Source: Gadus chalcogrammus
Lineage: Eukaryota; Chordata; Actinopteri; Gadiformes; Gadidae
Length of the DNA stretch: 64,000 nt
NCBI RefSeq assembly: GCF_026213295.1
Contig: NC_079419.1
Location: 26,947,206-27,011,205, forward strand
Direction: 5' to 3'
The notes below the pieces were generated by a model. That model was not told where the DNA came from, did not search any database, and saw nothing but the letters and a program-made list of their open reading frames with translations. The position numbers and the translations under genes were made by a program. Each line of letters begins with the position of its first letter. Position 1 is the first letter of the stretch. Below, one piece after another: positions 14,740 through 55,497 of the stretch.

Positions 14740-15766
14740 GTGGTCCAAGCCAACAGGTTGGATCCCTATTGTTTTTGTAGTGTTTTTCTTCCTATACTTA
14801 CCTCCCTAAAACTGGTACCACAGCCCAAACCGTAAATGGTGCGGACACGCCAATTGCATGACTAGATCCAGATCTCTTCGGACTACGCAGACGACAAAAT
14901 CCAGACACGCCGGTCCCTAGGTGGCGCTATACCAAGGAAAACGCGTTTGGGTCTATAACTCCCACACCGAACCTCCCAGAGTCCAAAAACTTGTACCCCC
15001 AGATGCTGGAGTCTATGTCTATGAATATTTTTCGCTAAATCGCGAAAACCGCAAAACTGTTTTTTCCCTACTCCTCCCACATTTCGTGACCAATCGACAC
15101 CAAACTTTGCACACGACATCGTCAGACTCACACAAAAAAATAAATTCGAACACTTTTTTGATCCGACCTTTTCCGACGAAACGGTAGCGTTTTAGATATT
15201 GGTTTATTAGCTAAATTAGACGTTGAAAATCAAAAATCCAAAAAGACCCAAAATTAGACATCGGATCGATTCCAAATTTTTGACACATGTCGATGCTACC
15301 CCTACTGGCGTTCAATAAAATAATCGGAATATTTCGCCATAAGGGGGCGCAATAAACAAGGAAATTTTATATCTTCTAATTGGCCGGAGGAATGTTCTTC
15401 AAACCCGAGGGAAACCATCAAGGAGCAATCCCGAGTCTATATAGAAAATATGGCCAAGAATTATTTATGTGGGCGGGAGTTATTTGGAAAAGGAAAATTG
15501 TCTTTGGAAAATTTCGCCACAAGGCGGCGCCAAAAAACGACGACATTGTATGTCTCCTAATTTGCCAATGGAATGTTCTGAAAACGCGTTTTGGGCTATA
15601 ACTCCCACACCGAACCTCCCACAGTCAAAACCTTTATATCCACAGATTCACTGGAGTCAGCTGCATCTTTTGGCATACGCCGTTCCTCAATTTCGAACAC
15701 ATGCTTCGCGTTGTGCCGGCGAAATGCACACTTCTTGGACCCCTGCATAACTGCTTGCAGTTCTAG
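14740..15766 (+). mobile_element. Family B hairpin-ended element, copy 1
   Basis: The left tip GTGGTCCAAGCC (consensus GGGGTCC...) is followed by the hairpin CCAAC/GTTGG. The right end has TTGGACCCC, inverse of the left tip, then a hairpin AACTGC-TT-GCAGTT and TTCTAG. The body carries AACCGTAAATGG near 14828 and a CTAGGTGGCGCTA motif at about 14918. No (TTA)n tract follows the left module in this copy, and it is the most diverged B copy. No coding capacity. Confidence 0.8.
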
Positions 15767-15769
15767 TTA

Positions 15770-16672
15770 GGGGTCCAAGCCAACAGGTTGGATCCCTATT
15801 GTTTTTGTAAGGATTATTATTATTAGGGGTCCAAGCCAACAGGTTGGATCCCTATTGTTTTTGTAAGGATTATTATTATTCCCAGCTAGAAGTGGTACCA
15901 CAGCCCAAACCGTAAATGGTGCACACACGCCAATTGCATGACTAGATCCAGGTACGTGAGGTGACGGCAGACGACTAAATCCAGACACGCCGGCCACTAG
16001 GTGGCGCTATACCAACGAATACGCGTTTGGGGCTATAACTCCCACACTGAACCTCCCAGAGTCCAAAAACTTGTACCCACATATGCACTGGAGTCTGCTG
16101 CATCTTTTGGCCTAGGCCACGCCCATTTGCGTCCATGAATATTTTTCGCAAAATCGCGAAAACCGCAAAACAGTTTTTTCGCTACTCCCACATTTCTTGA
16201 CCAATCAACACCAAACTTTGCACACGGCATCTTCAGACGCACCCGCAAAGAAATTATAGACAGTTTTTTGATCCGACCTTCGACGACGAAACGGTAGCGT
16301 TTTGAATATTGGTTTATGAGCTAAATTAGACGTGGAAAATCAAAAATCCAAAGAAATCCAAAATTAGACATCGGAACGAGTCCAAATTGTACACACATGT
16401 TGTAGATAACCTTAATGTCGTACGATAACAATTTCGCCATTAGGGGGCGCAATAAACGAGGAAATTGTATTTCTTCTACAAAATGTTGCCGCGAAAACGC
16501 TACACTGACTTCTCGCTACTCCTACCACAGTCAAATCCTTTGTATCCACAGGTTCAGGGTAGCGTTTTGAACACATGCTTTGCGTTGTGCCGGCGAAACT
16601 TACATTTCTTGTCGCGTTGTGCCGGCGAAATGCACACTTCCTGGACCCCTGCATAACTGCTTGCAGTTCTAG
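15770..16672 (+). mobile_element. Family B element, copy 2, with two left modules
   Basis: Left hairpin modules start at 15770 and 15826, each ending in a TTATTATT run. The body starts at 15881 (CCCAGCTAG) and ends with TGGACCCC and the AACTGC/GCAGTT hairpin. The body contains a perfect CTCF-type 19-mer (15991-16009). It abuts copy 1 through TTA only. Confidence 0.88.
15991..16009 (+). promoter_or_regulatory. CTCF-type motif in family B copy 2
   Basis: CGGCCACTAGGTGGCGCTA matches all 19 positions of the vertebrate CTCF consensus as I know it (yGRCCASYAGRKGGCRSYr). An identical 19-mer is at 47621-47639 in family B copy 4. Binding is not shown by sequence alone. Confidence 0.6.
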
Positions 16673-16680
16673 TTATTATT

Positions 16681-16735
16681 GGGTGTCAAGCAACTATGTT
16701 GCGAGACAACCTATTGTTATTGTACGAATTCTTAT
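16681..16735 (+). mobile_element. Solitary family A left module between two B elements
   Basis: GGGTGTCAAGCAAC, TAT, GTTGC...GACAACC, then TGTACGAATTCTTATT. It has no A body and is followed by TTA and then a B left module. The same A-left/B-left junction recurs at 47343-47400. Confidence 0.9.
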
Positions 16736-16737
16736 TA

Positions 16738-17602
16738 GGGGTCCAAGCCAACAGGTTGGATCCCTATTGTTTTTGTAAGGATTATTATTATACTTACAGG
16801 CTTGAAAGTGGGACTACAGCCCAAACCGTAAATGGTGCACACGCGCCAATTACATGACTAGATCCAGAATCGGCACCGCTACTCAGATAACAAAATCCAG
16901 ACACGCCGGTCCCTAGGTGGCGCTATACCAAGGAATACGCGTTTGGGGCTATAACTCCCACACCGAACCTCCCACAGTCCAAAACGTTATACCCACAGAT
17001 GCACTGGAGTCTGTTGCATCTTTTGGCCTATGCCACGCCCATTTGCGTCTATGAATATTTTTCGCAAAATCGCGAAAACCACAAAACTGTTTTTTCGCTA
17101 CTCCTCCCACATTTCTCGCCCGATCAACACCAAACTTTGCATATGGCATCTTCAGACGCACACGCAAAGAAATCATAGACAGTTTTTTGATCCGACCTTC
17201 GACGACGAAACGGTAGAGTTTTGAATATTTGTTTATTAGCTGAATTAGACGTGGAAAATTAAAAATCCAAAAAAATCCAAAATTAGACATCGGATCGAGT
17301 CCAAATTCTACACACATGTTGGTGCTAACCTTAATGACGTTCGATAAAAATTTCGGAAAATTTCGCCATTAGGGGGCGCAATAAACGAGGAAATTGTATA
17401 TCTTCTACAAAATTTCGCCGCGAAAACGCTACACTGACTTCTCGCTACTCCTACCACAGTCAAATCCTTTTGTATCCACAGGTTCAGGGTAGCGTTTTCA
17501 ACACATGCTTCGCGTTGTGCCGGCGAAATTCACATTTCTTGTCGCGTTGTGCCGGCGAAATGCACACTTCTTGGACCCCTGCATAACTGCTTGCAGTTCT
17601 AG
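16738..17602 (+). mobile_element. Family B element, copy 3
   Basis: The left module GGGGTCCAAGCC... runs into ATTATTATTA, the body starts near 16791, and the right end TTGGACCCC plus AACTGC/GCAGTT hairpin ends at 17602. Two CTCF-like cores (CTAGGTGGCGCTA near 16914 and ATTAGGGGGCGCA near 17369) sit in the body. Confidence 0.88.
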
Positions 17603-17607
17603 TTATT

Positions 17608-17903
17608 GGGTGTCAAGCAACTATGTTGCGAGACAACCTATTGTTATTGTACGAATTCCTATTATTATTGGGTGTCAAGCAACTATGTTGCGAGACAACC
17701 TATTGTTTTCGTACGAATTCCTATTATTATTGGGTGTCAAGCAACTATGTTGCGAGACAACCTATTGTTTTCGTACGAATTCCTATTATTGGGTGTCAAG
17801 CAACTATGTTGCGAGACAACCTATTGTTTTTGTATGAATTCCTATTATTGGGTGTCAAGCAACTATGTTGCGAGACAACCTATTGTTATTGTACGAATTC
17901 TTA
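17608..17903 (+). repeat. Five tandem family A left modules
   Basis: GGGTGTCAAGC starts at 17608, 17670, 17732, 17791 and 17850, each about 52 bp plus a TTATTATT spacer. Each folds as GTC-aa-GCAAC-tat-GTTGC-ga-GAC. They precede the first A body. Confidence 0.93.
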
Positions 17904-17920
17904 TTATTATTATTATTATT

Positions 17921-19524
17921 ATGCTGCCATTGGAGTCAATGGTAGCCCATAGAACCGCTTGGCGAAAAGTTGTGAAATTTGGCACACTGGTTCAGGACAG
18001 CCCCATTAGCCCATTAAGCCAATCTCAGGTCGCTAGCCCAACAGCTCTAGCGCCACCAACAGGTCAAAGTTGGGCATGCATTCATGTTCATAACTTTCGA
18101 CCTATTCGACCAATATTCACAAACCAGGTATCATTGGATTCCTTGAACCAAGCCCAGTTCAACACACCCAATGACGTCATTGTGCCATGACGTATATTTC
18201 CGCCATCTTGGTTTATGTCCAAAACCTTCAAAATGCTACTTCTATCACAAATCTTGTCCAATCATCTCGAATCTTGGCACACATGATCTTCTGGCCATGC
18301 TTGATAAAAAACATCGAATAGATTTGTCAAATTCAAAACCGTTTGTCCGCTAAAGCCAATCAAATTTAACCGCCAAGTTGCCAAACCGGAAGTAAGCCCA
18401 TATCTCAGAAGCCCTTTGACCTATCATAACCAACCTTGGTAGAGAGACCCATGACCGCATCACGGTGACACTGAATGAATTTGGTGACCCTTGACCTCTA
18501 GGTGGCGCTGTTATTAATGTCGATGTGTTTTGACTCCTCTCTCTTCACATGAGTACATTTAAAACTGATTTTCAATGTCTTGTGATACTATCAGACCTCC
18601 CCATATAGCTCATATATTACGTCTTGCAGAAATATCCACGACAGCCAATGATATTCGAGCGCGAAGCCGGAAAACCGGAAACACGCCAATATCTCTGCAG
18701 CCCTTTGACATATCATAACCAAACTTGATACATTGACCCATAACATAATCATGGGGACACTCAAAGAATTTGGTGACCATTGACCGCTAGGGGGCGCTAT
18801 AATTAATGAAGACGTGTTTTAACTCCTCTCTCTTCACATGAGTACATTTCAAACTTATTTTCAATGTCTGATGATACTGTCAGACCTACTCATATAGCTT
18901 ATAAATTATTTCTCATTGCAACATCAGAACTTGGCCGCCATGTTGAAAGTTGTCAAAATCAGTTGTAAATTCCCACAGGCCACAAATTATGTCCAATCTT
19001 CATGAAACTCTGCATATATGATCTTCAGACCAAGCTGAAGTAATGAGTTAAACAGCTTTCTCAAATTCAAAACCGTTTGGCCGTGACAGGCAATCAAACT
19101 TGACGGCGCTCATTAATGGGTAGACACTGCACTCGTGTGGCGATAAGCGGTACTTAATGTATAATGCAACAATGACTATATTTACCATTCCGCCCACTTA
19201 AAATATAAACTGCAATTCCCACTGGATCAGATGCTTCACGAACCACCTCCAGAAGGGATGCTTGTTTACATGGCGTCTCTTTTAGGGATATTGTTCCGAA
19301 TACCCCTATGTATTTGTGACATTTGTTCTGTCAGGCAGACTGCATTGCGCCCTTACCTCTAGGTGGGGTCCTTTTTCCCATTTACTCATCCCACCGGCTG
19401 TCGGCATTGCCGATTTCCGAGACGGTCGTCATGTAGCCCCCAGGCCAATTGCGTCCATCCGGCAGAATTAGCCTACCGAGTCCGATTATGCTTGACACCC
19501 ACATTGCTGCTCGCAGCTATATTT
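17921..19524 (+). repeat. A monomer 1 (long class, 1604 bp)
   Basis: Long form retaining the 3' segment with GGCCGCCATGTTGAAAG near 18954 that short forms lack. Starts ATGCTGCCATTGG. Preceded by five left modules. Confidence 0.93.
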
Positions 19525-19578
19525 ATTGGGTGTCAAGCAACTATGTTGCGAGACAACCTATTGTTATTGTACGAATTC

Positions 19579-19612
<34 letters not shown>

Positions 19613-19861
19613 GCTGCCATTGGAGTCAATGGCAGCCCATAGAACCGCTTGGCGAAAAGTTGTGAAATTTGGCAAACTTGTTCAGGACTGCCCCATTAGC
19701 CCATTAAGCCAATCTAAGGTCGCTAGCCCAACAGCTCTAGCGCCACCAACAGGTCAAAGTTGGGCATGCATTCATGTTCATAACTTTTGACCTATTCGAC
19801 CAATTTTCACAAACCAGGTATCATTGGATTCCTTGAACCAAGCCCAGTTCAACACATCCTA

Positions 19862-19901
19862 TGACGTCATTGCGCCATGACGTATATGTCCGCCATCTTG
19901 G
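19862..19901 (+). promoter_or_regulatory. CRE and YY1-type motifs of A monomer 2 (representative)
   Basis: A palindromic CRE TGACGTCA (19862-19869) and a YY1-type CCGCCATCTTGG (19890-19901) lie 20 bp apart. The CRE is intact in 18 of 20 monomers (lost in 13 and 19). The YY1 core is intact in 19 of 20 (lost in 11). Confidence 0.5.
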
Positions 19902-20181
19902 TTTATGTCAAAAACCTTCAAAATGCTACTCCTATCACAAATCTTGTCCAATCATCTCGAAACTTGGCACACATGATCTTCTGGCCATCCTTGATGAAAA
20001 ACATCGAATAGATTTGTCAAATTCAAAACCGTTTGCCCGCTAAAGCCAATCAAATTTGGCGGCGAAGCCGCCAAACAGGAAGTGAGCCGATTTCTCAGCA
20101 TCCCTTTGACATATCATAACCAGACTTGGTATATAGACCCATGGCCTCATAAAGGTGACACTGATTTAATTTGGTGACCTT

Positions 20182-20200
20182 TGACCTGTAGGGGGCGCTG
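20182..20200 (+). promoter_or_regulatory. CTCF-like motif 1 of A monomer 2 (representative)
   Basis: TGACCTGTAGGGGGCGCTG fits the consensus at 18 of 19 positions (T instead of A at position 6). It overlaps a DR1-type nuclear-receptor half-site pair TGACCTTTGACCT at 20175-20187. Equivalent sites recur in the other monomers. Confidence 0.5.
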
Positions 20201-20471
20201 TTATTAATGTCCATGTGTTTTGACCTCTTTCTCTTCACATGAGTACATTTACAACTTATTTTCAATGTCTGGTGATACTATCAGACCTCCCCGTATAGCT
20301 AGTATATTATAACTTGCACAAATATCCGCGACAGCCAATGATATTCAACCGCGAAGCCGCCAAACTGGAAAAAACGCCAATATCTCAGTATCCCTTGGAC
20401 AAATCATAACCAAACTTGATACATAGACCCATAACATCATTATGGGGACACTCAATGAATTTGGTGACCAT

Positions 20472-20490
20472 TGACCTCTAGGGGGCGCTA
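20472..20490 (+). promoter_or_regulatory. CTCF-like motif 2 of A monomer 2 (representative)
   Basis: TGACCTCTAGGGGGCGCTA, also 18 of 19 positions, lies 290 bp after motif 1 in the second internal subrepeat. Most monomers have both; 16 and 17 have one. Confidence 0.5.
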
Positions 20491-20950
20491 TAATTAATGA
20501 AGACGTGTTTTAACTCCTCTCTCTTCACATGAGTACATTTCAAACTTATTATCAATGTTTAATGATACTGTCAGACCTCCCCATATATCTTGTAAATTAT
20601 TTTGTTGATATTGTTCCGAATACCCCTATGTATTTGTGACATTTGTTCTGTCAGGCAGACTGCATTGCCCCCTTACCTCTAGGTGGGGTCCTTTTCCCAT
20701 TTACTCATCCCACCGGCTGTCGGTATTGCCGATTTCCGAGGCGGTCGTCATGTAGCCCCCTGGCCGATTGCGTCCATCCGGCAGAATAAGCCTACCGAGT
20801 CCGATTATGCTTGACACCCACATTGCTGCTCGCAGCTATATTTGGGTGTCAAGCAACTATGTTGCGAGACAACCTATTGTTATTGTACGAATTCTTATTG
20901 GGTGTCAAGCAACTATGTTGCGAGACAACCTATTGTTATTGTACGAATTC

Positions 20951-20985
<35 letters not shown>

Positions 20986-20987
<2 letters not shown>

Positions 20988-22217
20988 GCTGCCATTGGAG
21001 TCAATGGCAGCCCATAGAACCGCTTGGCGAAAAGTTGTGAAATTTGGCACACTTGTTCAGGACTGCCCCATTAGCCCATTAAGCCAATCTAAGGTCGCTA
21101 GCCCAACAGCTCTAGCGCCACCAACAGGTCAAAGTTGGGCATGCATTCATGTTCATAACTTTTGACCTATTCGACCAATTTTCACAAACCAGGTATCATT
21201 GGATTCCTTGAACCAAGCCCAGTTCAACAAACCCTATGACGTCATTGCGCCATGAAGTATATGTCCGCCATCTTGGTTTATGTCAAAAACCTTCAAAATG
21301 CTACTCCTATCACAAATCTTGTCCAATCATCTCGAAACTTGGCACACATGATCTTCTGGCCATCCTTGATGAAAAACATCGAATAGATTTGTCAAATTCA
21401 AAACCGTTTGCCCGCTAAAGCCAATCAAATTTGGCGGCGAAGCCGCCAAACAGGAAGTGAGCCGATTTCTCAGCATCCCTTTGACATATCATAACCAGAC
21501 TTGGTATATAGACCCATGGCCTCATAAAGGTGACACTGATTTAATTTGGTGACCTTTGACCTGTAGGGGGCGCTGTTATTAATGTCCATGTGTTTTGACC
21601 TCTTTCCCTTCACATGAGTACATTTACAACTTATTTTCAATGTCTGGTGATACTATCAGACCTCCCCGTATAGCTAGTATATTATAACTTGCACAAATAT
21701 CCGCGACAGCCAATGATATTCAACCGCGAAGCCGCCAAACTGGAAAAACGCCAATATCTCAGTATCCCTTGGACAAATCATAACCAAACTTGATACCTAG
21801 ACCCATAACATCATTATGGGGACACTCAATGAATTTGGTGACCATTGACCTCTAGGGGGCGCTATAATTAATGAAGACGTGTTTTAACTCCTCTCTCTTC
21901 ACATGAGTACATTTCAAACTTATTATCAATGTTTAATGATACTGTCAGACCTCCCCATATATCTTGTAAATTATTTTGTTGATATTGTTCCGAATACCCC
22001 TATGTATTTGTGACATTTGTTCTGTCAGGCAGACTGCATTGCCCCCTTACCTCTAGGTGGGGTCCTTTTCCCATTTACTCATCCCACCGGCTGTCGGTAT
22101 TGCCGATTTCCGAGGCGGTCGTCATGTAGCCCCCTGGCCGATTGCGTCCATCCGGCAGAATAAGCCTACCGAGTCCGATTATGCTTGACACCCACATTGC
22201 TGCTCGCAGCTATATTT
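20986..22217 (+). repeat. A monomer 3 (short class, 1232 bp)
   Basis: Two left modules (20844, 20900). Diagnostic variants CATGAAGTATATG and GATACCTAGACC are shared with monomers 5 and 9. Confidence 0.95.
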
Positions 22218-22380
22218 ATTGGGTGTCAAGCAACTATGTTGCGAGACAACCTATTGTTATTGTACGAATTCTTATTATTATTATTATTATTATTATTGGG
22301 TGTCAAGCAACTATGTTGCGAGACAACCTATTGTTATTGTACGAATTCTTATTCTTATTATTATTATTATTATTATTATT

Positions 22381-23612
22381 ATGCTGCCATTGGAGTCAAT
22401 GGCAGCCCATAGAACCGCTTGGCGAAAAGTTGTGAAATTTGGCAAACTTGTTCAGGACTGCCCCATTAGCCCATTAAGCCAATCTAAGGTCGCTAGCCCA
22501 ACAGCTCTAGCGCCACCAACAGGTCAAAGTTGGGCATGCATTCATGTTCATAACTTTTGACCTATTCGACCAATTTTCACAAACCAGGTATCATTGGATT
22601 CCTTGAACCAAGCCCAGTTCAACACATCCTATGACGTCATTGCGCCATGACGTATATGTCCGCCATCTTGGTTTATGTCAAAAACCTTCAAAATGCTACT
22701 CCTATCACAAATCTTGTCCAATCATCTCGAAACTTGGCACACATGATCTTCTGGCCATCCTTGATGAAAAACATCGAATAGATTTGTCAAATTCAAAACC
22801 GTTTGCCCGCTAAAGCCAATCAAATTTGGCGGCGAAGCCGCCAAACAGGAAGTGAGCCGATTTCTCAGCATCCCTTTGACATATCATAACCAGACTTGGT
22901 ATATAGACCCATGGCCTCATAAAGGTGACACTGATTTAATTTGGTGACCTTTGACCTGTAGGGGGCGCTGTTATTAATGTCCATGTGTTTTGACCTCTTT
23001 CTCTTCACATGAGTACATTTACAACTTATTTTCAATGTCTGGTGATACTATCAGACCTCCCCGTATAGCTAGTATATTATAACTTGCACAAATATCCGCG
23101 ACAGCCAATGATATTCAACCGCGAAGCCGCCAAACTGGAAAAACGCCAATATCTCAGTATCCCTTGGACAAATCATAACCAAACTTGATACATAGACCCA
23201 TAACATCATTATGGGGACACTCAATGAATTTGGTGACCATTGACCTCTAGGGGGCGCTATAATTAATGAAGACGTGTTTTAACTCCTCTTTCTTCACATG
23301 AGTACATTTCAAACTTATTATCAATGTTTAATGATACTGTCAGACCTCCCCATGTATCTTGTAAATTATTTTGTTGATATTGTTCCGAATACCCCTATGT
23401 ATTTGTGACATTTGTTCTGTCAGGCAGACTGCATTGCCCCCTTACCTCTAGGTGGGGTCCTTTTCCCATTTACTCATCCCACCGGCTGTCGGTATTGCCG
23501 ATTTCCGAGGCGGTCGTCATGTAGCCCCCTGGCCGATTGCGTCCATCCGGCAGAATAAGCCTACCGAGTCCGATTATGCTTGACACCCACATTGCTGCTC
23601 GCAGCTATATTT
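22381..23612 (+). repeat. A monomer 4 (short class, 1232 bp)
   Basis: Two left modules (about 22220 and 22298) separated by a longer (TTA)n. Variants match monomer 2 (CACATCCTATGACG, GATACATAGACC). Confidence 0.95.
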
Positions 23613-23722
23613 ATTGGGTGTCAAGCAACTATGTTGCGAGACAACCTATTGTTATTGTACGAATTCTTATTGGGTGTCAAGCAACTATGTTGCGAGACAA
23701 CCTATTGTTATTGTACGAATTC

Positions 23723-23757
<35 letters not shown>

Positions 23758-23759
<2 letters not shown>

Positions 23760-24989
23760 GCTGCCATTGGAGTCAATGGCAGCCCATAGAACCGCTTGGC
23801 GAAAAGTTGTGAAATTTGGCACACTTGTTCAGGACTGCCCCATTAGCCCATTAAGCCAATCTAAGGTCGCTAGCCCAACAGCTCTAGCGCCACCAACAGG
23901 TCAAAGTTGGGCATGCATTCATGTTCATAACTTTTGACCTATTCGACCAATTTTCACAAACCAGGTATCATTGGATTCCTTGAACCAAGCCCAGTTCAAC
24001 AAACCCTATGACGTCATTGCGCCATGAAGTATATGTCCGCCATCTTGGTTTATGTCAAAAACCTTCAAAATGCTACTCCTATCACAAATCTTGTCCAATC
24101 ATCTCGAAACTTGGCACACATGATCTTCTGGCCATCCTTGATGAAAAACATCGAATAGATTTGTCAAATTCAAAACCGTTTGCCCGCTAAAGCCAATCAA
24201 ATTTGGCGGCGAAGCCGCCAAACAGGAAGTGAGCCGATTTCTCAGCATCCCTTTGACATATCATAACCAGACTTGGTATATAGACCCATGGCCTCATAAA
24301 GGTGACACTGATTTAATTTGGTGACCTTTGACCTGTAGGGGGCGCTGTTATTAATGTCCATGTGTTTTGACCTCTTTCCCTTCACATGAGTACATTTACA
24401 ACTTATTTTCAATGTCTGGTGATACTATCAGACCTCCCCGTATAGCTAGTATATTATAACTTGCACAAATATCCGCGACAGCCAATGATATTCAACCGCG
24501 AAGCCGCCAAACTGGAAAAACGCCAATATCTCAGTATCCCTTGGACAAATCATAACCAAACTTGATACCTAGACCCATAACATCATTATGGGGACACTCA
24601 ATGAATTTGGTGACCATTGACCTCTAGGGGGCGCTATAATTAATGAAGACGTGTTTTAACTCCTCTCTCTTCACATGAGTACATTTCAAACTTATTATCA
24701 ATGTTTAATGATACTGTCAGACCTCCCCATATATCTTGTAAATTATTTTGTTGATATTGTTCCGAATACCCCTATGTATTTGTGACATTTGTTCTGTCAG
24801 GCAGACTGCATTGCCCCCTTACCTCTAGGTGGGGTCCTTTTCCCATTTACTCATCCCACCGGCTGTCGGTATTGCCGATTTCCGAGGCGGTCGTCATGTA
24901 GCCCCCTGGCCGATTGCGTCCATCCGGCAGAATAAGCCTACCGAGTCCGATTATGCTTGACACCCACATTGCTGCTCGCAGCTATATTT
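23758..24989 (+). repeat. A monomer 5 (short class, 1232 bp)
   Basis: Two left modules (23616 and about 23672). Variants match monomer 3, so monomers 4-5 repeat the 2-3 dimer. Confidence 0.95.
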
Positions 24990-25099
24990 ATTGGGTGTCA
25001 AGCAACTATGTTGCGAGACAACCTATTGTTATTGTACGAATTCTTATTGGGTGTCAAGCAACTATGTTGCGAGACAACCTATTGTTATTGTACGAATTC

Positions 25100-25128
<29 letters not shown>

Positions 25129-25130
<2 letters not shown>

Positions 25131-26360
25131 GCTGCCATTGGAGTCAATGGCAGCCCATAGAACCGCTTGGCGAAAAGTTGTGAAATTTGGCACACTTGTT
25201 CAGGACTGCCCCATTAGCCCATTAAGCCAATCTAAGGTCGCTAGCCCAACAGCTCTAGCGCCACCAACAGGTCAAAGTTGGGCATGCATTCATGTTCATA
25301 ACTTTTGACCTATTCGACCAATTTTCACAAACCAGGTATCATTGGATTCCTTGAACCAAGCCCAGTTCAACAAACCCTATGACGTCATTGCGCCATGACG
25401 TAAATGTCCGCCATCTTGGTTTATGTCAAAAACCTTCAAAATGCTACTCCTATCACAAATCTTGTCCAATCATCTTGAAACTTGGCACACATGATCTTCT
25501 GGCCATCCTTGATGAAAAACATCGAATAGATTTGTCAAATTCAAAACCGTTTGCCCGCTAAAGCCAATCAAATTTGGCGGCGAAGCCGCCAAACAGGAAG
25601 TGAGCCGATTTCTCAGCATCCCTTTGACATATCATAACCAGACTTGGTATATAGACCCATGGCCTCATAAAGGTGACACTGATTTAATTTGGTGACCTTT
25701 GACCTGTAGGGGGCGCTGTTATTAATGTCCATGTGTTTTGACCTCTTTCTCTTCACATGAGTACATTTACAACTTATTTTCAATGTCTGGTGATACTATC
25801 AGACCTCCCCGTATAGCTAGTATATTATAACTTGCACAAATATCCGCGACAGCCAATGATATTCAACCGCGAAGCCGCCAAACTGGAAAAACGCCAATAT
25901 CTCAGTATCCCTTGGACAAATCATAACCAAACTTGATACATAGACCCATAACATCATTATGGGGACACTCAATGAATTTGGTGACCATTGACCTCTAGGG
26001 GGCGCTATAATTAATGAAGACGTGTTTTAACTCCTCTCTCTTCACATGAGTACATTTCAAACTTATTATCAATGTTTAATGATACTGTCAGACCTCCCCA
26101 TATATCTTGTAAATTATTTTGTTGATATTGTTCCGAATACCCCTATGTATTTGTGACATTTGTTCTGTCAGGCAGACTGCATTGCCCCCTTACCTCTAGG
26201 TGGGGTCCTTTTCCCATTTACTCATCCCACCGGCTGTCGGTATTGCCGATTTCCGAGGCGGTCGTCATGTAGCCCCCTGGCCGATTGCGTCCATCCGGCA
26301 GAATAAGCCTACCGAGTCCGATTATGCTTGACACCCACATTGCTGCTCGCAGCTATATTT
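25129..26360 (+). repeat. A monomer 6 (short class, 1232 bp)
   Basis: Two left modules (about 24993 and 25049). Mixed variants: AACAAACCCTATGACG as in monomer 3, but GATACATAGACC as in monomer 2. Confidence 0.95.
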
Positions 26361-26375
26361 ATTATTATTATTATT

Positions 26376-27607: not shown

Positions 27608-27634
<27 letters not shown>

Positions 27635-27636
<2 letters not shown>

Positions 27637-42717: not shown

Positions 42718-42726
42718 ATTATTATT

Positions 42727-44330
42727 ATCCTTCAATGGGAGTCAATGGCAGCCCATAGAACCGCTTGGCGAAAAGTTGTGAAATTTGGCACACTGGTTCA
42801 GGACAGCCCCATTAGCCCATTAACCAAATCTCAGGTCGCTAGCTCAACAGCTCTAGCGCCACCAACAGGTCAAAGTTGGACATGCATTCATGTTCATAAC
42901 TTTCGACTTATTCGACCAATATTCACAAACCAGGTATCATTGGATTTCTTGAACCAAGCCCAGTTCAACAAACCCTATGACGTCATTGTGCCATGACGTA
43001 TAAATCCGCCATCTTGGTTTATGTCAAAAACCTTCAAAATGCTACTTCTATCACAAATCTTGTCCAATCATCTCGAAACTTGGCACACATGATCTTCTGG
43101 CCATGCTTGATAAAAAACATCGAATAGATTTGTCAAATTCAAAACCGTTTGTCCGCTAAAGCCAATCAAATTTAACCGCCAAGTTGCCAAACCGGAAGTA
43201 AGCCCATATCTCAGAAGCCCTTTGACCTATCATAACCAACCTTGGTAGAGAGACCCATGACCGCATCACGGTGACACTGAATGAATTTGGTGACCCTTGA
43301 CCTCTAGGTGGCGCTGTTATTAATGTCGATGTGTTTTGACTCCTCTCTCTTCACATGAGTACATTTAAAACTTATTTTCAATGTCTGGTGATACTATCAG
43401 ACCTCCCCATATAGCTCATATATTACGTCTTGCAGAAATATCCGCGACAGCCAATGATATTCGAGCGCGAAGCCGGAAAACCGGAAACACGCCAATATCT
43501 CTGCAGCCCTTTGACATATCATAACCAAACTTGATACATTGACCCATAACATAATCATGGGGACAATCAAAGAATTTGGTGACCATTGACCGCTAGGGGG
43601 CGCTATAATTAATGAAGACGTGTTTTAACTCCTCTCTCTTCACATGAGTACATTTCAAACTTATTTTCAATGTCTGATGATACTGTCAGACCTACTCATA
43701 TAGCTTATAAATTATTTCTCATTGCAACATCAGAACTTGGCCGCCATGTTGAAAGTTGTCAAAATCAGTTGTAAATTCCCACAGGCCACAAATTATGTCC
43801 AATCTTCATGAAACTCTGCATATATGATCTTCAGACCAAGCTGAACTAATGTGTTAAACAGCTTTCTCAAATTCAAAACCGTTTGGCCGTGACAGGCAAT
43901 CAAACTTGACGGCGCTCATTAATGGGTAGACACTGCACTCGTGTGGCGATAAGCGGTACTTAATGTATAATGCAACAATGACTATATTTACCATTCCGCC
44001 CACTTAAAATATAAACTGCAATTCCCACTGGATCAGATGCTTCACGAACCACCTCCAGAAGGGATGCTTGTTTACATGGTGTCTCTTTTAGGGATATTGT
44101 TCCGAATACCCCTATGTATTTGTGACATTTGTTCTGTCAGGCAGACTGCATTGCGCCCTTACCTCTAGGTGGGGTCCTTTTTCCCATTTACTCATCCCAC
44201 CGGCTGTCGGTATTGCCGATTTCCGAGGCGGTCGTCATGTAGCCCCCTGGCCAAATGCGTCCATCCGGCAGAATTAGCCTACCGAGTCCGATTATGCTTG
44301 ACACCCACATTGCTGCTCGCAGCTATATTT
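42727..44330 (+). repeat. A monomer 18 (long class, 1604 bp)
   Basis: Starts ATCCTTCAATGGG. Both subrepeats present. No left module. Its first half resembles monomers 16-17. Confidence 0.94.
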
Positions 44331-44463
44331 GGGTGTCAAGCAACTATGTTGCGAGACAACCTATTGTTTTCGTACGAATTCCTATTATTATTGGGTGTCA
44401 AGCAACTATGTTGCGAGACAACCTATTGTTTTTGTACGAATTCCTATTATTATTATTATTATT

Positions 44464-46069
44464 ATCCTTCAATGGGAGTCAATGGCAGCCCATAGAACCG
44501 CTTGGCGAAAAGTTGTGAAATTTGGCACACTGGTTCAAGACAGCCCCATTAGCCCATTAACCCAATCTCAGGTCGCTAGCCCAAAAGCTCTAGCGCCACC
44601 AACAGGTCAAAGTTGGACATGCATTCATGTTCATAACTTTTGACCCATTCGACCAATATTCACAAACCAGGTATCAATGGATTCCTTGAAACAAGCCCAG
44701 TTCAACACACCCTATGACCTCATTGCGCCATGACGTATATTTCCGCCATCTTGGTTTATGTCAAAAACCATCAAAATGCTACTTCTATCACAAATCTTGT
44801 CCAATCATCTCGGAACTTGGCGCACATGATCTTCTGGCCATCTTTGATAAAAAACATTGAATAGATTTGTCATATTCAAAACCGTTTGCCCGCTAAAGCC
44901 AGTCAAATTTGGCGGCGAAGCCGCCAAACAGGAAGTGAGCCAATTTCTCAGCATCCCTTTGACATATCATAACCAGGCTTGGTATATAGACTAATGGCCT
45001 CATAAAGGTGACACTGATTGAATTTGGTGACCTTTGACCTCTAGGGGGCGCTGTTATTAATGTCGATGTGTTTTGACTCCTTTCACTTCACATGAGTATA
45101 TTTAAAACTTATTTTCAATGTCTGGTGATACTATTAGACCTATCAGTATAGCTAGTGTATTATTTCTTGCAGAAATATCCGCGACAGCCAATGATATTCG
45201 ACCGCGAAGCCGCCAAACCGGAAACACGCCAATATATCAGCAGCCATTTGACATATCGTAACCAAACTTGATACATAGACCCATGGCCTCATTAAGGTGA
45301 CACTCAATGAATTTGGTGACCATTGACCTATAGGGGGCGCTGTTATTAATGACGATGTGTTTTAACTCCTCTCTCTTCACATGAGTACATTTCAAACTTA
45401 TTTTTAACGTCTGAGGATACTGCCAGACCTCCTTATATAGCTTATGAATCATTTCTCATTGCAACATCAGAACTTGGCCGCCATGTTGAAAGTTGTCAAA
45501 ATCAGTTGAAAATTTCCTAAGGCCACAAATTATGTCCAATCTTCATGGAACTTGGCATATATGTTCTTCAGACCAAGCTGAACAAAGGTATCAAACAGCT
45601 TTCTCAAATTCAAAACCGTTTGGCCGTGACAGCCAATCAAACTTGACGGCGCTCATTAATGGGTAGACACTGCACTCGTGTGGCGACATGCGGTACTTAA
45701 TGCATAATGCAACAATGACTCTATTAACCATTCCGCCCGCTTACGATATAAACTGCAATACCCACTGGATTAGATGCTTCACGAACCACCTCCAGAACGG
45801 ATACTTGTTTACATTGTGTCTCTTTTAGAGATATTGTTCCGAATACCCCTATGTATTTGTGACATTTGTTCTGTCAGGCAGGCTGTATTGCGCCCATACC
45901 TCTAGGTGGGGTCATTTTCCCACATAATGCTCATCCCACCGGCTGTCGGTATTGCCGATTTCCGAGACGGTCGTCATGTAGCCCCCTGGCCAATTGCGTC
46001 CATCAGGCAGAATTAGCCTACCGAGTCCGATTATGCTTGACACCCACATTGCTGCTCGCAGCTATATTT
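44464..46069 (+). repeat. A monomer 19 (long class, 1606 bp)
   Basis: Two left modules (44331 and about 44394). CRE mutated to TGACCTCA, as in monomer 13, of which it is the 9013-bp-offset copy. Confidence 0.93.
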
Positions 46070-46075
46070 ATTATT

Positions 46076-47342
46076 ATGCTGCCATTGGAGTCAATGGCAG
46101 CCCATAGAACCGCTTGGCGAAAAGATGTGAAATTTGGCACACTTGTTCAGGACAGCCCCATTAGCCCATTAAGCCAATCTCAGGTCGCTAGCCCAACAGC
46201 TCTAGCGCCACCAACAGGTCAAAGTTGGACATGCATATATGTTCATAACTTTCGACCCATTCGACAAATATTCACAAACCAGGTATCATTTGATTCCTTG
46301 AACCAAGCCCAGTTCAACAAACCCTATGACGTCATTGCGCCATGACGTATATTTCCGCCATCTTGGTTTATGTCAAAAACCATCAAAATGCTACTTCTAT
46401 CACAAATCTTGTCCAATCATCTCGAAACTTGGCACACATGATCTTCTGGCCATCCTTGATGAAAAACATCGAATAGATTTGTCAAATTCAAAACTCTTTG
46501 CCCGCTTAAGCCAATCAAATTTGGCGGCGAAGCCGCTAAACAGGAAGTGAGCCGATTTCTCAGCATCCCTTAGAAATATCATAACCAGACTTGGTATATG
46601 GACCCATGGCCTCATAAAGGTGACACTGATTGAATGTGGTGACCTTTGACCTCTAGGTGGCGCTGTTATTAATGTCGAAGTGTTTTGACTCCTCTCTCTT
46701 CACATGAGTACATTTCAAACTTATTTTCAATGTCTGGTGATACTAACAGACCTCCCCGTGCGGCTAGCATATTATTTATTGCAGAAATATCCGTGACAGC
46801 CAATGATATTCGACCGCGAAGCCACCAAACCGGAAACACGCCAATATCTCAGCATCCCTTTGACATATCATAACCAAACTTGTTACATAGACCCATAACA
46901 TCATCATGGGAACACTCAATGAATTTGGTGACCATTGACCTCTAGGGGGCGCTATAATTAATGAAGACGTGTTTTAACTCCTCTCTCTTCACATACAAAT
47001 AAATAATAATAAAATAATAATAATAATAAAAATACATTTCAAACTTATTTTCAATGTTTAATGATACTGTCAGACCTCCCCATATATCTTGTAAATTATT
47101 TTGTTGATATTGTTCCGAATACCCCTATGTATTTGTGACATTTGTTCTGTCAGGCAGACTGCATTGCGCCCTTACCTCTAGGTGGGGTCCTTTTCCCATT
47201 TACTCATCCCACCGGCTGTCGGTATTGCCGATTTCCGAGGCGGTCGTCATGGAGCCCCCTGGCCGATTGCGTCCATCCGGCAGAATAAGCCTACCGAGTC
47301 CGATTATGCTTGACACCCACATTGCTGCTCGCAGCTATATTT
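46076..47342 (+). repeat. A monomer 20 (1267 bp), last of the array
   Basis: Copy of monomer 14 with the same A/T-rich replacement (about 46996-47033), but with a CTGCCATTGG start. Followed by one A left module (47343-47395) and then family B. Confidence 0.93.
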
Positions 47343-47395
47343 GGGTGTCAAGCAACTATGTTGCGAGACAACCTATTGTTATTGTACGAATTCTT
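47343..47395 (+). mobile_element. Family A left module at the right edge of the array
   Basis: GGGTGTCAAGCAAC...GTTGC...GACAACC then ATTCTTATTA, joining directly to a family B left module. Confidence 0.92.
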
Positions 47396-47399: not shown

Positions 47400-48284
47400 G
47401 GGGTCCAAGCCAACAGGTTGGATCCCTATTGTTTTTGTAAGGATTATTATTATTAGGGGTCCAAGCCAACAGGTTGGATCCCTATTGTTTTTGTAAGGAT
47501 TATTATTATTCCCAGCTAGAAGTGGTACCACAGCCCAAACCGTAAATGGTGCACACGCGCCAATTACATGACTAGAACCAGTACCGGCACCGCTACTCAG
47601 ATAACCAAATCCAGACATGCCGGCCACTAGGTGGCGCTATACCAAGGAGAAACACGTTTGGGGCTATAACTCCCACACCGAACCTCCCAGAGTCCAAAAA
47701 CTTGTACACACAGATGCACTGGAGTCTGCTGCATCTTTTGGCCTAGGCCACGCCCATTTGCGTCTATGAATATTTTTCGCTAAATCGCGAAAACCGCAAA
47801 ACTGTTTTTTCCCTACTCCTCCCACATTTCTTGACCAATCGACACCAAACTTTGCACACGACATCTTCAGACGCACACGCAAAGAAATCATATATACTTT
47901 TTTGATCCGACCTTCGACGACGAAACGGTAGCGTTTTGAATATTTGTTTATTAGCTTAATTAGACGTGGAAAATCAAAAATCAAAAAAAATCCTAAATTA
48001 GACATCGGATCGAGTCCAAATTTTACACACATGTCGGTGCTAACCTTACTGTCGTTCGATAAAAAATTCAGAAAATTTCGCCATTAGGGGGCGCAATAAA
48101 CAAGGAAATTGTATATCTTCTACAAAATTTCGCCGCGAAAACGCTACACTGACTTCTCGCTACTCCTACCACAGTCAAATCCTTTGTATCCACAGGTTCA
48201 GGGTAGCGTTTTGAACACATGCTTCGCGTTGTGCCGGCGAAATGCACACTTCTTGGACCCCTGCATAACTGCTTGCAGTTCTAG
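47400..48284 (+). mobile_element. Family B element, copy 4, with two left modules
   Basis: Left modules start at 47400 and 47456, the body at about 47511, and the right end TTGGACCCC plus AACTGC/GCAGTT hairpin and CTAG ends at 48284. It is the mirror-side flank of the A array, close to copy 2 in sequence. Unique DNA follows. Confidence 0.9.
47621..47639 (+). promoter_or_regulatory. CTCF-type motif in family B copy 4
   Basis: Same 19-mer as at 15991-16009. The two lie on opposite sides of the A array and in the same orientation. Confidence 0.6.
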
Positions 48285-51429: not shown

Positions 51430-52859
51430 GGAAGAGGCAAAGGGATAGGTGGGCTATTGGCATACTGAACTAAGGTAACAACACACCATGACACACAACA
51501 ATGTAACTTTCGCTACAATGGGTGACGACAGTCATCTAAATCAGCGGATAATGGACTATGAACAATTTACTGAATTTAACACATTGGATCACTATGAGCA
51601 CAACACAATGGACTTGGAACTGGACATTGACCTAGATATTAATTTATTTTCCAACATTAATAACTCTTGTAAATACTACACTACTGAACAGTATAATCAC
51701 AACTTCAAAGCAGATGGGAAGTTATCTATTATTCACATTAACAGTAGAAGTCTATATGCAAACTTGAAATCCATCAAGAACTATTTGTACTCATTCTCAC
51801 AACCATTCAATATCATTGCAATCTCTGAAACCTGGTTCAACAAGGAAAAGGAAATGGACTGTGAGATGGATGGCTAGGAACTTACTTATAAAAACAGACT
51901 TAACAAGGGTGGAGGAGGAGTAGCAATTTATGTGGATAAAAACTTCAATTTCAAGATTGTAGAGGCTATGTCACAGGTGGTTGATAACCTTCTCGAATGC
52001 ATTACAATTGAGATCTGCATGGAAAACAAAAAATATATGCTAATCAGTTGTGTATATAGGGCGCCCGATTCAAGTATTGATACTTTTAAGGATTGGATGG
52101 GAGGCATGTTCTCAGGAATAGGTAATAAAAATATATTTATATGTGGAGATACCAACATAGATCTATTGAAACGTAGCAATCATAAAAGTACAGAGGATTT
52201 TATAAATACAATACACAGTATGTGCCTACTTCCTTCGATCACTAGACCCAGTAGAATCACAACTCATAGTGCCTCTCTCATAGACAACATATTTACCAAT
52301 GTAATTGATAACAAAATAAGTGGGTTATTAGTCTGCGATATTACGACCACCTGCCAGTGTTTACGGTAATTGATTATGTTTATAAGAATAGGACAGAAAA
52401 ACAAAAAATATTTAGACTAATCAAGACAGACAAATCAATTAATATGTTAATACAGGATCTAGTATCACAGAACTGGGACATGATTTATAACGAAAAAGAT
52501 GTGGACGGTGCTTATAATATATTTTTGGAGATATTTAAGGCTAAGTATGATAAACATTGTCCAATCAAAGAATGCAACAAAAAAAGAGCATATGATAACT
52601 GTCCATGGTTAACGAAAGGTTTGCAAAATGCTTGCAAAAAGAAAAATGCATTATACAGGAATTATATTAGACAAAGAACCAAAGAAGCCGAGGATAAATA
52701 TAAAACATATAAAAATAAGTTAATCAGTATTATAAGGATAAGTAGGAAAGAATACTATAAGAATAAACTAGATCGTAATAAAGATAACATAAAAGGGATA
52801 TGGAACATTTTAAATAGTATAACTAGAATTGCAATCCCTGAAGGTATTGCGGTGTGAAT

Positions 52860-53190
52860 GCTAACGCTGAAATGCTCCGCAATACTGCTGAAGCTGCACG
52901 TTGAAGAATCGTTGCAATGAATCTAGGACATCTGCTGAACATTTTGAATGTAGAATGAAGTCTGTAGAATGAACCATGAATGAGTTGAATGGTTTTGAAG
53001 TCATACTGCTAAAGTCTGCTGACGCTGAAATGCTCCGCTCTACTGCTGAAGCTGCACGTTGAAGAATCGTTACAATGAATCTAGGACATCTGCTGAACAT
53101 TTTGAATGTAGAATGAAGTCTGTAGAATGAACTATGAATGAGTTGAATGGTTTTGAAGTCATACTGCTAAAGTCTGCAGTACTGCTGAAG
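52860..53190. repeat. About 163-bp tandem repeat, two copies, in family C
   Basis: GCTGAAATGCTCCGC starts near 52866 and 53029, with long near-identical downstream sequence. A third partial copy lies near 53500. Confidence 0.85.
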
Positions 53191-53815
53191 CTGCATGTTG
53201 AATCAATACCCTGAATCTAGGAAATCTGCTGAACATTTTGAAGGTAGAATGAAGCCTGTAGAATGAAGACGCTGAATCTAGGAAATCTGATGAACATTTT
53301 GAAGGTAGAATGAAGCCTGTAGAATGAAGACGCTGAATCTAGGAAATCTGCTGAACATTTTGAAGGTAGAATGAAGCCTGTAGAATCAATACCCTGAATC
53401 TAGGAAATCTGCTGAACATTTTGAAGGTAGAATGAAGTCTGTAGAATGAACTATGAATGAGTTGAATGGTTTTGAAGTCATACTGCTAAAGTCTGCTGAC
53501 GCTGAAATGCTCCGCTCTACTGCTGAAGCTGAATGTTGAATCAATACCCTGAATCTAGGAAATCAGCTGAACATTTTGAAGGTAGAATGAAGCCTGTAGA
53601 ATGAAGACGCTGAATCTAGGAAATCTGCTGAACATTTTGAAGGTAGAATGAAGCCTGTAGAATGAAGACGCTGAATCTAGGAAATCTGCTGAAAATTTTG
53701 AAGGTAGAATGAAGCCTGTAGAATGAAGACACTGAATCTAGGAAATCTGCTGAACATTTTGAAGGTAGAATGAAGCCTGTAGAATGAAGACGCTGAATCT
53801 AGGAAATATAATAGC
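53190..53815. repeat. 61-bp minisatellite in family C
   Basis: AGGAAATCTGCTGAACATTT recurs at a 61-bp spacing (for example near 53219, 53280, 53341 and again from about 53615 on), about nine copies with point changes. Confidence 0.9.
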
Positions 53816-53854
53816 AAGATGGTACTAATGCAGCTGAACGTTTTAACGTTTGAA

Positions 53855-54350
53855 TGCTAACCTCAGCGCTAACGCTAAGGTCAACTCAAATGTCAGCGCT
53901 AACGCTAACGTCAACGCTAACGTCAGCGCTTATGGTAACGTCAATCCTAACTTTAGCGCTAAAGCTAACGTCAATGCTAATTCAGCGCTAATGCTAACGC
54001 TAACGTCAACGCTAACTTCAGTGCTAATGCTACCGTCAGGGATAACGTCAACTCCAACGTTAGCGCTAATGCTAACGTCAATGCTAATTCAGCGCTAATG
54101 CTAACGTCAGGGCTAACGGTAACGTCAACTCTAACGGTAACGTCAATGCTAACTTCAGCGCTAATGCTAACTTCAGCGCTAATGCTAACTTCAGTGCTAA
54201 TGCTAACGTCAACGCTAACGTCAGCGCTAATGGTACCGTCAATGCTAACTTTAGCGCTAATGCTAACGTCTGCGCTAACGCTAACGTCAGAGCTAACGTC
54301 GGAGGTAACGGCCGCGCTAACGTCAACTCTAACGTCACTGCTAACGTCCA
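53855..54350. repeat. Degenerate GCTAACGTCA hexamer/dodecamer array in family C
   Basis: About 500 bp of interleaved GCTAAC, GTCAAC, GTCAGC and GCTAAT words. It creates spurious long open frames on both strands. Confidence 0.9.
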
Positions 54351-54439
54351 TTGTTGTAGTCCATGACAAAGACTACACTACCCTCCACCACACTGACTTT
54401 AACCAGACTCCAAAGTGGTGTGCTCGCCACTGATTGTCA

Positions 54440-54960
54440 ACAAGCAACAGCTGTGGCAAACGGTTAACGAATCCGGAATAAAACTAAAACTGTGAATCTG
54501 AAAAAACTATAAATTATATCGAAATTCTGTTTGAATATTATCGAAGAGACAAATGTGTAAATCTGTTTAATTCCTTGAATGATGGTAAACGGTTGAAATT
54601 TGACCAAGTTATGAAGGTTTGAATGTTGTAAATGTTGAATAGGATGAAGGTTGAATCAGCCTCAAGGTTGAATCAGCCTCATTTGAATATTGAATGTTAG
54701 AGACCACTGATTGGTCAACGAGCTGTTGCCATGGCAAACGGTTAGAGTGAGAGCAACTGAAAACGAATCCGGAATAAAACTAAAACTGTGAATCTGAAAA
54801 AACTATAAATGATATCGAAATTCTGTTTGAATATTATTGAAGATACAAATGTGTAGATCTGTTTAATTCTTTGAATGATGGTAAACGGTTGAAATTTGAC
54901 CAAGTTATGAAGGTTTGAATGTTGGAAGTGTTGAATCGGATCAAGGGTGAATCAGCGTTT
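54440..54960. repeat. Two-copy repeat of about 285 bp in family C
   Basis: AACGAATCCGGAATAAAACT occurs near 54467 and 54763, each followed by the same text with scattered changes. This parallels the paired internal subrepeats of family A. Confidence 0.85.
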
Positions 54961-55146
54961 TTTGAATTTTGAATGGGAGTGAATGGGGCAATTTTCGGTG
55001 AATAAAGTTGAATATCTCGGGAATTATGAATAATAGAGAAAAATAATAGCATAATACTACTAATGGAGCTGAACGTTTTAATGTTTCTACGTTGAAGTAT
55101 GTTGAAGGAGATGCTCGCAGAAAAAGTGGCGGAATAATAATAATTA

Positions 55147-55497
55147 TAAAAATAAATATGTAGGATTTCAAAGCTGTGAATGCTACAGCATTCACACCAA
55201 AAATAAATATGTAGGATTTCAAAGCTGTGAATGCTACAGCATTCACACCAAAAATAAATATGTAGGATTTCAAAGCTGTGAATGCTACAGCATTCACACC
55301 AAATACGTAGGATTTCAAAGATGTGAATGCTTGCAGCATTCACACCAATAAATATGTAGGATTTCAAAGCTGTGAATGCTATAGCATTCACACCAAAAAT
55401 AAATATGTAGGATTTCAAAGCTGTGAATGCTACAGCATTCACACCAAAAATAAATATGTAGGATTTCAAAGCTGTGAATGCTTGCAGCATTCACACC
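55147..55497 (-). repeat. Seven tandem family C left modules
   Basis: Seven copies of a 46-53 bp unit containing GGATTTCAAAGCTGTGAATG and AGCATTCACACC. Each ends in a hairpin of stem TGAATGCT/AGCATTCA with a 2-4 nt loop (AC, AT or TGC-type). Two copies carry the CTTGCAGC variant loop. Confidence 0.93.

What the first reader, a model, noticed from the sequence alone, without database searches (positions are those of the whole stretch)
14740..55497. Three unrelated-looking repeat families share one architecture: hairpin module, (TTA)n, body, inverted tip, terminal hairpin
Family A: tip GGGTGTCAAGC, inverse GCTTGACACCC, end hairpin GCTGC/GCAGC. Family B: tip GGGGTCCAAG, inverse TTGGACCCC, end hairpin AACTGC/GCAGTT. 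Family C: tip GGTGTGAATGCT, inverse AGCATTCACACC, end hairpin GCAAT/ATTGC. In all three a left hairpin module of about 50 bp precedes a TTATTATT tract, can be tandemly multiplied (up to 5, 2 and 7 copies), and no transposase is encoded. A short asymmetric inverted repeat plus a 3' hairpin is what is known of Helentron/Helitron2 elements, so I infer one rolling-circle machinery mobilising several lineages. I know of no description of the modular, self-multiplying left hairpin.
Basis: partly seen in the sequence, partly recalled or inferred. Interest (0 to 1): 0.88.

Follow-up and report, generated by a model that had tools for sequence, protein, structure and literature searches.

The report
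Nested arrays of fish Helentron transposons
The three repeat families look like short passenger copies of a known class of rolling-circle jumping genes, piled head-to-tail inside one another at T-rich landing spots, and the same genome carries a protein-coding relative that shares one family's end; this is mostly a known kind of element with an unusually readable pile-up.

Summary
In detail: tips, inverse tips, end hairpins, TTA tracts and left-module copy numbers (5, 2, 7) are in the sequence. The elements behave as non-autonomous Helentrons (HINEs). (1) Family C interrupts a LINE; uninterrupted LINE paralogues in the same genome show insertion at a TT. (2) The 33.5-kb A/B composite (14736-48284) sits in one T-rich tract; three paralogous sites lack it. 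(3) A Helentron with an uninterrupted Rep frame in the same genome ends in family B's 3' terminus at both loci examined (of 21 Rep matches). Its 5' tip was not reached; A and C have no linked partner yet. A and B are not unrelated: they are homologous at both ends. The "self-multiplying left hairpin" is not undescribed: multiple 5' termini and a self-insertion model are published for Fusarium Helitron2/Helentron-like elements. Here the best account is siblings inserting into the TTA tract between a resident's left module and body (extra modules upstream, module-less bodies downstream), plus block duplication; the order statistics are only suggestive. C (7 modules, 1 body) needs another step.

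The parts
14736..15766 (+). B element 1: outermost left end of the composite (tip variant GTGGTCCAAG at 14740), body, 3' end TTCTAG at 15766
   Evidence: left border by three empty sites
15767..16672 (+). B element 2 with two left modules (15770, 15826)
16681..16730 (+). solitary A left module directly in front of B element 3
16738..17602 (+). B element 3 (left module 16738, 3' end 17602)
17608..17922 (+). five A left modules (17608, 17670, 17732, 17791, 17850) and TTA tract
17923..47335 (+). A array: 20 bodies A01-A20 in five length classes, with 3' hairpins; 9 of 20 without a left module
47343..47392 (+). solitary A left module in front of B element 4
47400..48284 (+). B element 4 with two left modules (47400, 47456); right border of the composite
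   Evidence: right border by three empty sites
52823..55499 (-). C element: TTGGTGTGAATG... to ...GCAATTCTAG, inserted in a LINE (TT ambiguous)
   Evidence: empty LINE paralogues
55148..55499 (-). seven C left modules (spacing 46-52 bp)
52823..52862 (-). C 3' end: inverse tip AGCATTCACACC, hairpin GCAAT/ATTGC, AATTCTAG
51479..52822 (+). host LINE, endonuclease side, interrupted by C
55500..57206 (+). host LINE, reverse transcriptase side

Best explanation
Families A, B and C are non-autonomous Helentrons (HINEs): a 5' subterminal repeat lying in a palindrome (the left module), a TTA microsatellite, a body, the inverse repeat, a 3' hairpin and a short 3' tail. A Rep protein made elsewhere in the genome nicks at the T-rich 5' border, one strand is copied up to the 3' hairpin, and the product joins at a TT in a T-rich tract without target duplication. 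Shown: the structure, TT or T-rich empty sites for C and for the A/B composite, and a Helentron in the same genome ending in B's 3' terminus. Inferred: that its Rep moves A, B and C, and the steps of copying. Because each resident carries a T-rich TTA tract between left module and body, siblings land there, always in the same orientation; each landing leaves the resident's module upstream and its body, module-less, downstream. Repeated, this gives stacked modules, module-less bodies and A modules in front of B. Block duplication, and probably transfer of multi-headed copies from the leftmost tip to the first 3' end, do the rest. C's seven modules with one body need module amplification from a truncated template, or slippage.
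For:: of four LINE paralogues at 93-96% identity three are uninterrupted across C's site (L029, L032: 0 nt between the flanks; L031: the same apart from a mismatch at the flank's end); empty CTCTTA/TTATACT on the element strand, TT on both sides of C, no extra bases; 3 of 3 paralogous sites fetched read CGTTCTTTATTTATTTATTTATTTTACTTCC or a T-richer variant where the window has 33.5 kb. PF14214 21 matches, 6 of 21 with uninterrupted frames of 2326-2499 aa; Rep motif 2 FRVEFQQRGSPHTH, the Helentron form given in PMC4067079; at the 2 loci whose 3' side I read (C1, C7) the sequence runs on into B's 3' end, identical over the 60 nt compared to the window's B element 4; the C1 copy is followed by a module-less B body, the C7 copy by three B modules and a body; 20 of 20 A ends are followed by TATATT|T; 9 lead straight into a TTA tract and body; 23 modules and 20 ends on +, 0 on -; in part of a B array on C1, 34 of 79 exact ends have no exact module in front, runs reach 8, and 42 of 43 end-to-module spacings are 26+3k; typed nested matching 9 of 9 (P 0.006-0.009).
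Against: The nesting model was devised after seeing this window and its order is weakly supported: untyped P 0.23-0.36; with one module or one body typed otherwise 8 of 9, P 0.07-0.08; with block copies removed 6 of 6, P 0.03-0.04, or, removing the other copies, 3 of 7, P 0.82; in the C1 array 34 of 34, but random orders do nearly as well (P 0.23) and the reversed order gives 32 of 34. Modules outnumber ends (23 to 20 A, 6 to 4 B, 7 to 1 C; 3298 to 2754 exact B genome-wide), so modules also multiply without bodies, or bodies are lost. Block duplications show ordinary recombination in the array. The Helentron's 5' tip was not seen, its helicase region was not read, its endonuclease match is below Pfam's cut-off (20.3 of 24.5 bits), and its two copies differ by a 53-nt gap just before the B-like 3' end. 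No autonomous partner was tied to A or C.
Confidence: 0.72

Rival explanations
1. The module copies and losses come from unequal crossing-over or slippage between the TTA tracts that flank each module, not from insertion; the elements are still Helentrons.
For: Block duplications such as 4096 bp at 99.1%, 2947 bp at 99.15% and 2937 bp at 98.6%, whose borders lie in TTA tracts or at tips (other alignments of that listing end inside bodies); dimer pattern A02-A03, A04-A05, A08-A09; the 56-nt spacing of doubled modules recurs; joints keep TTA phase; order test not significant when untyped or in the C1 array.
Against: Does not easily put four H2-type modules (17608-17791) in front of an H1 element with four H2-type bodies left bare about 18-25 kb downstream (17608 and body A14 are of mixed or variant type), nor A modules in front of B elements twice, nor a 25-kb stretch without B ends that holds the Helentron and ends in B's terminus right before a bare B body.
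Confidence: 0.3
2. Rolling-circle read-through: arrays were inserted as multimers made when termination failed, and multiple heads arise from truncated circular templates.
For: One orientation in the window's A array and in the first 100 places listed for B modules and for B ends on C1; C has seven 5' modules and one 3' end, the pattern reviewed for plant Helitrons in PMC12628747 (passages seen); the whole A/B composite lies in one site.
Against: The array mixes two families and five A body classes, which one circle cannot give; module-less bodies are not predicted.
Confidence: 0.25
3. They are DDE-type MITEs (e.g. PIF/Harbinger with TTA target duplications).
For: Tips start GGG or GGT and lie next to TTA tracts.
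Against: The 3' inverse repeat is internal, with hairpin and tail between it and the border, in C and at the composite's right end by empty sites; no 3-bp duplication is needed; the relative found for B is a Rep protein.
Confidence: 0.02

Closest known systems
HINE / DINE-1 elements (Thomas et al. 2014, PMC4067079: abstract, section 4 part 1 of 3, section 15 and passages read; DINE-1 in PMC2374699: passages)
   Same: 5' subterminal repeat a few nt from the end with a palindrome or complementary repeat, microsatellite, internal 3' inverse repeat, 3' palindrome, TT or T-rich target, no target duplication, partner Helentrons.
   Different: TTA tract as microsatellite; left module stacked, up to 8 in the exact runs seen; arrays tens of kb long or more.
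Cg_HINE of oyster (PMC7492417: passages and discussion part 1 of 2 read)
   Same: Left flank = subTIR, complementary IR, microsatellite; right flank = subTIR, palindrome.
   Different: Oyster copies multiply the central repeats, not (in what I read) the left flank.
FoHeli Helitron2/Helentron-like elements of Fusarium (PMC5148889: abstract, sections 6, 10, 16 and passages read)
   Same: Hairpins and asymmetric inverted repeats; multiple 5' termini with one 3' terminus; self-insertion proposed as the cause; three copies in tandem noted in Metarhizium.
   Different: Duplicated 5' parts of 31-85 nt in the examples given; no TTA tract and no long arrays in what I read.
Plant Helitron arrays of Xiong et al. 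2016 (seen only as summarised in passages of PMC12628747)
   Same: Multiple 5' ends with a single 3' end.
   Different: Helitrons of plants; truncated copies.

Membership tests
HINE (non-autonomous Helentron) | 5' subterminal inverted repeat of about 11-15 bp within a few nt of the 5' end | tested here: met
   A 11, B 9-10, C 12 nt; C tip 0-2 nt from the border by empty site
HINE (non-autonomous Helentron) | subTIR palindromic or followed by a complementary IR | tested here: met
   fold z -3.3, -3.0, -4.0; A module: 96% of cells paired against 22-53% when slid, one compensatory pair in 3 of 7 sequences
HINE (non-autonomous Helentron) | 3' inverse repeat internal, with palindrome between it and the 3' end | tested here: met
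   C by empty site, B at the composite's right border, A from sequence only; palindrome energies weak in A and B
HINE (non-autonomous Helentron) | insertion at TT or T-rich site without target duplication | tested here: met
   C: 3 of 4 close paralogues uninterrupted; A/B composite: 3 of 3 sites fetched, of 8 paralogous places. TT duplication versus TT belonging to the element cannot be told apart; no solo A copy was tested
HINE (non-autonomous Helentron) | shares ends with an autonomous Helentron | tested here: inconclusive
   B: 3' end shared at 2 of 2 loci read, of 21 Rep matches; 5' end not reached; A and C not linked
Helentron (for the genomic ORFs) | Rep with S in motif 2 | tested here: met
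   FRVEFQQRGSPHTH; PF14214 E 1.3e-28
Helentron (for the genomic ORFs) | C-terminal AP endonuclease | tested here: inconclusive
   last 92 aa of the C7 copy: PF03372 E 5e-4, 20.3 bits, below the cut-off of 24.5
Helentron (for the genomic ORFs) | PIF1-type helicase domain | not tested
   that part of the frame was not fetched
Canonical Helitron | insertion between A and T, 5' TC | tested here: not met
   TT or T-rich borders; 5' TTGG or TTAGG. The 3' CTAG of B and C does fit CTRR, and one placement of C's border is A/T
PIF/Harbinger MITE | terminal TIRs and 3-bp TWA duplication | tested here: not met

The most novel reading that the evidence does not exclude
The left module plus TTA tract is a portable, self-renewing landing pad: every copy offers its siblings, and other Helentron families, a T-rich strand-specific target just behind its own replication origin, so that families nest in each other in one orientation, trade heads (A-headed B elements) and build arrays of more than 100 kb that keep a Helentron with an open frame inside.
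Probability: 0.35. Interest if true: 0.68.

Novelty: new member of a known kind. Interest (0 to 1): 0.47.

Why it matters
If nested insertion is the cause, the arrays preserve the order of landing events, so they could test how rolling-circle transposons turn into satellite-like DNA: each module-less body should have its module upstream. The genome offers a Helentron, thousands of B-type ends and paralogous empty sites together, which makes much of the mechanism testable by sequence alone.

Tried and rejected
PIF/Harbinger-type MITE: rejected on the empty sites. Scans of viral contigs with an A module, a B module, an A/B mid-module pattern and an A end and of prokaryote contigs with the A module gave no relative; one search gave three hits whose surroundings show no tip or hairpin, which I take as chance. 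No solitary module was found in the window outside the arrays. Pfam on 20 of the 31 frames of at least 120 aa gave the LINE domains, a TCR domain and weak matches, and no Rep, helicase or DDE transposase. The nested-order test was tried on two arrays and is only suggestive. Homology of C's 3' end to A and B was tested with a stretch that stops short of the shared TTCTAG (z 0.0 and 0.6). C was never counted genome-wide: the tool did not complete.
Full report
OBSERVATION. The stated motifs are present at the stated places and far above chance. A: 23 tips and 20 inverse tips, exact. B: 6 left modules (one with a mismatch) and 4 ends. C: 7 modules and 1 end, on the - strand. Module runs reach 5, 2 and 7. 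The 23 A modules and 20 A ends are all on the + strand. Left modules fold better than shuffles in all three families; the 3' hairpins are weak by energy in A and B and clear in C. Seven A-type modules (one of the window, six from five other loci) pair in 96% of cells against 22-53% when slid, with one compensatory pair in 3 of 7 sequences; column shuffles keep 93.9%, reached or passed in 11 of 500. I chose the rows and left out copies whose head is broken off, such as L024; with so few related sequences this is modest evidence.

A and B are related at both ends, z 6.5 and 4.4, while C's module is not clearly related to either (z 2.1 and 0.3); B and C share the 3' terminal TTCTAG. Nine of 20 A bodies have no left module: the previous 3' end runs straight into a TTA tract and body. 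Two A modules stand alone in front of B elements (16681, 47343). A bodies fall into classes of 1223-1224, 1595 with 1306, 1597, 1258 and 2255 bp, interleaved. Blocks of several elements are duplicated, for example 35440-38386 and 44453-47399 (99.15% over 2947 bp without gaps), 19523-23615 and 22293-26363, 17907-20843 and 30233-33162; the borders of these three lie in TTA tracts or at tips, while other alignments in the listing end inside bodies.

THE GENOME. The window is C8:26947206-27011205 of a 630-Mb assembly in 168 contigs. Named relatives of its LINE are from teleosts such as Oryzias, so I take it to be a fish; this is an inference. The A tip, which also counts inverse copies, occurs 819+836 times (control 39+45); the B module 22-mer 1752+1546 and the B end 23-mer 1490+1264 (controls 0). 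These listings show only the first 100 places; in both B listings all 100 are on C1 and on the + strand.

BORDERS. C interrupts a LINE whose two halves are at 51479-52822 and 55500-57206. The left flank has 41 matches in the genome, the window's own included. Of the four other copies at 93-96% identity, three are uninterrupted across the site and the fourth has a damaged right side. The empty site reads CTCTTA/TTATACT on the element strand; the filled site reads CTCTTATT-GGTGTG...GCAATTCTAG-TTATACT. C therefore inserted at a TT, and as for DINE-1 (PMC2374699, passages) one cannot say whether the TT is duplicated or part of the element. An earlier protein-level reading had suggested a 3-nt overlap and was wrong. 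For A/B, the left host flank is itself a repeat with eight other places. Three were fetched and all three are empty: CGTTCTTTATTTATTTATTTATTTTACTTCC twice and a T-richer variant once, where the window has CGTTCTTTATTAGTGGTCC at the left and TTCTAG|TTTTACTTCC at 48284. All 24 A and B bodies of the window thus lie within one landing site.

THE AUTONOMOUS RELATIVE. PF14214 gave 21 matches in the genome, 6 of 21 with uninterrupted frames of 2326-2499 aa; none in 14 control genomes. The C1 copy has FRVEFQQRGSPHTH, the Helentron form of Rep motif 2 according to PMC4067079. Pfam gives Helitron_like_N at E 1.3e-28 and, for the last 92 aa of the C7 copy, an endonuclease/exonuclease/phosphatase match below cut-off. 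An OTU-like stretch upstream is recognised by me from memory only; the helicase part was not read. Of the 21 loci I read the 3' side of two, C1:2443797 and C7:5271457 (a third, C1:2492805, is 99.97% identical to the first over 6.6 kb). They are 97.7% identical over 3.5 kb of the Rep part and 97.6% over 1.36 kb of the 3' part, and both end, about 1.3 kb past the stop, in the family B 3' end CTTGGACCCCTGCATAACTGCTTGCAGTTCTAG; they differ by a 53-nt gap shortly before it. The C1 copy is then followed by a B body without module, the C7 copy by three B modules and a body. The C1 copy lies in a giant B array: exact B ends run from 2311498 to 2424061, then none until the Helentron's own at 2449325. 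Its 5' tip was not reached; the 4 kb read upstream of L060 (L079, L083) show no A or B tip on the + strand with up to two mismatches.

HOW THE MODULES MULTIPLY. If a sibling inserts at a TT in the tract between a resident's module and body, the resident's module stays upstream of the newcomer and its body stays downstream without module. This predicts stacked modules, bare bodies, foreign modules in front of B, and one orientation; all are seen. The model was formed on this window, so the tests here are not independent of it. Matching bare bodies to upstream modules of the same head type without crossing succeeds for 9 of 9 (mean of random orders 5.6, P 0.006-0.009; reversed order 3 of 9). The result depends on typing: untyped P 0.23-0.36; retyping one module or one body 8 of 9, P 0.07-0.08; removing block copies 6 of 6, P 0.03-0.04, or, removing the other copies, 3 of 7, P 0.82. 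In the C1 array (2311500-2405290, exact matches only) 97 modules and 79 ends give 34 bare bodies, all matchable, but random orders do nearly as well (P 0.23) and the reversed order gives 32 of 34. End-to-module distances there are 26+3k in 42 of 43 cases, so joints keep TTA phase, which insertion and tract-mediated exchange both predict. I therefore hold nested insertion as the leading but unproven cause for A and B. C's seven modules with one body cannot come from it without loss of bodies; amplification from a truncated template, as reviewed for plant Helitrons in PMC12628747 (passages), or slippage fits better.

AGAINST THE LITERATURE. The architecture is that of HINEs: PMC4067079 and PMC7492417 (parts read) describe the subTIR, complementary or palindromic repeat, microsatellite, internal 3' subTIR, palindrome, T-rich target and lack of target duplication. 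Multiple 5' termini with a single 3' terminus, and self-insertion as a cause, are in PMC5148889 (sections 10 and 16). Tandem arrays are noted in PMC4067079 section 15 and PMC5876387 (passages). In the listings of my nine answered paper searches and the parts I read I saw no account of a TTA tract as landing pad or of such arrays in fish, but the library lacks most subscription papers and I opened only seven papers, none in full.

VERDICT. A new member of a known kind, with unusually informative arrays.

Noticed in passing
window 49117-50066: A separate element with terminal inverted repeats (ccgtattggtccgaatataagacga) between TATATA-like flanks.
   Followed up: no
window 48740-48870 and 50540-50680: A direct repeat of roughly 120 bp (ctgccttctgtgg...ggtcctgcttcc) on either side of that element, seen by eye.
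   Followed up: no
window 53196-54348: Inside C: a 61-bp tandem repeat in two blocks and a GCTAACGTC-type minisatellite, like the central repeats of HINEs.
   Followed up: no
window 18383-45456, within A bodies: A 289-bp internal near-duplicate (1.8-1.9 copies, 80-84% alike) is listed in 14 of 20 A bodies.
   Followed up: no
window 13644-14735: A frame with a TCR/CXC domain (PF03638) and, beyond it, the repeated host flank that is the landing site of the composite and has eight other places.
   Followed up: partly
L024 2501-2889: A very short A element: the inverse tip begins 378 bp after the tip.
   Followed up: no
L026 2088-2149: A scattered A copy with a 31-nt truncated left module in front of a full one, close to the 31-nt duplications reported for Fusarium elements.
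   Followed up: no
L025, just after the A end at 3850: Another tip-like hairpin (AGGTGTCTAGCACCGAAAGTGCAAGGTGCC) behind an A 3' end: perhaps a fourth family.
   Followed up: no
G000:C2:15380518-15469537: A second large region dense in A tips (listing is cut there).
   Followed up: no
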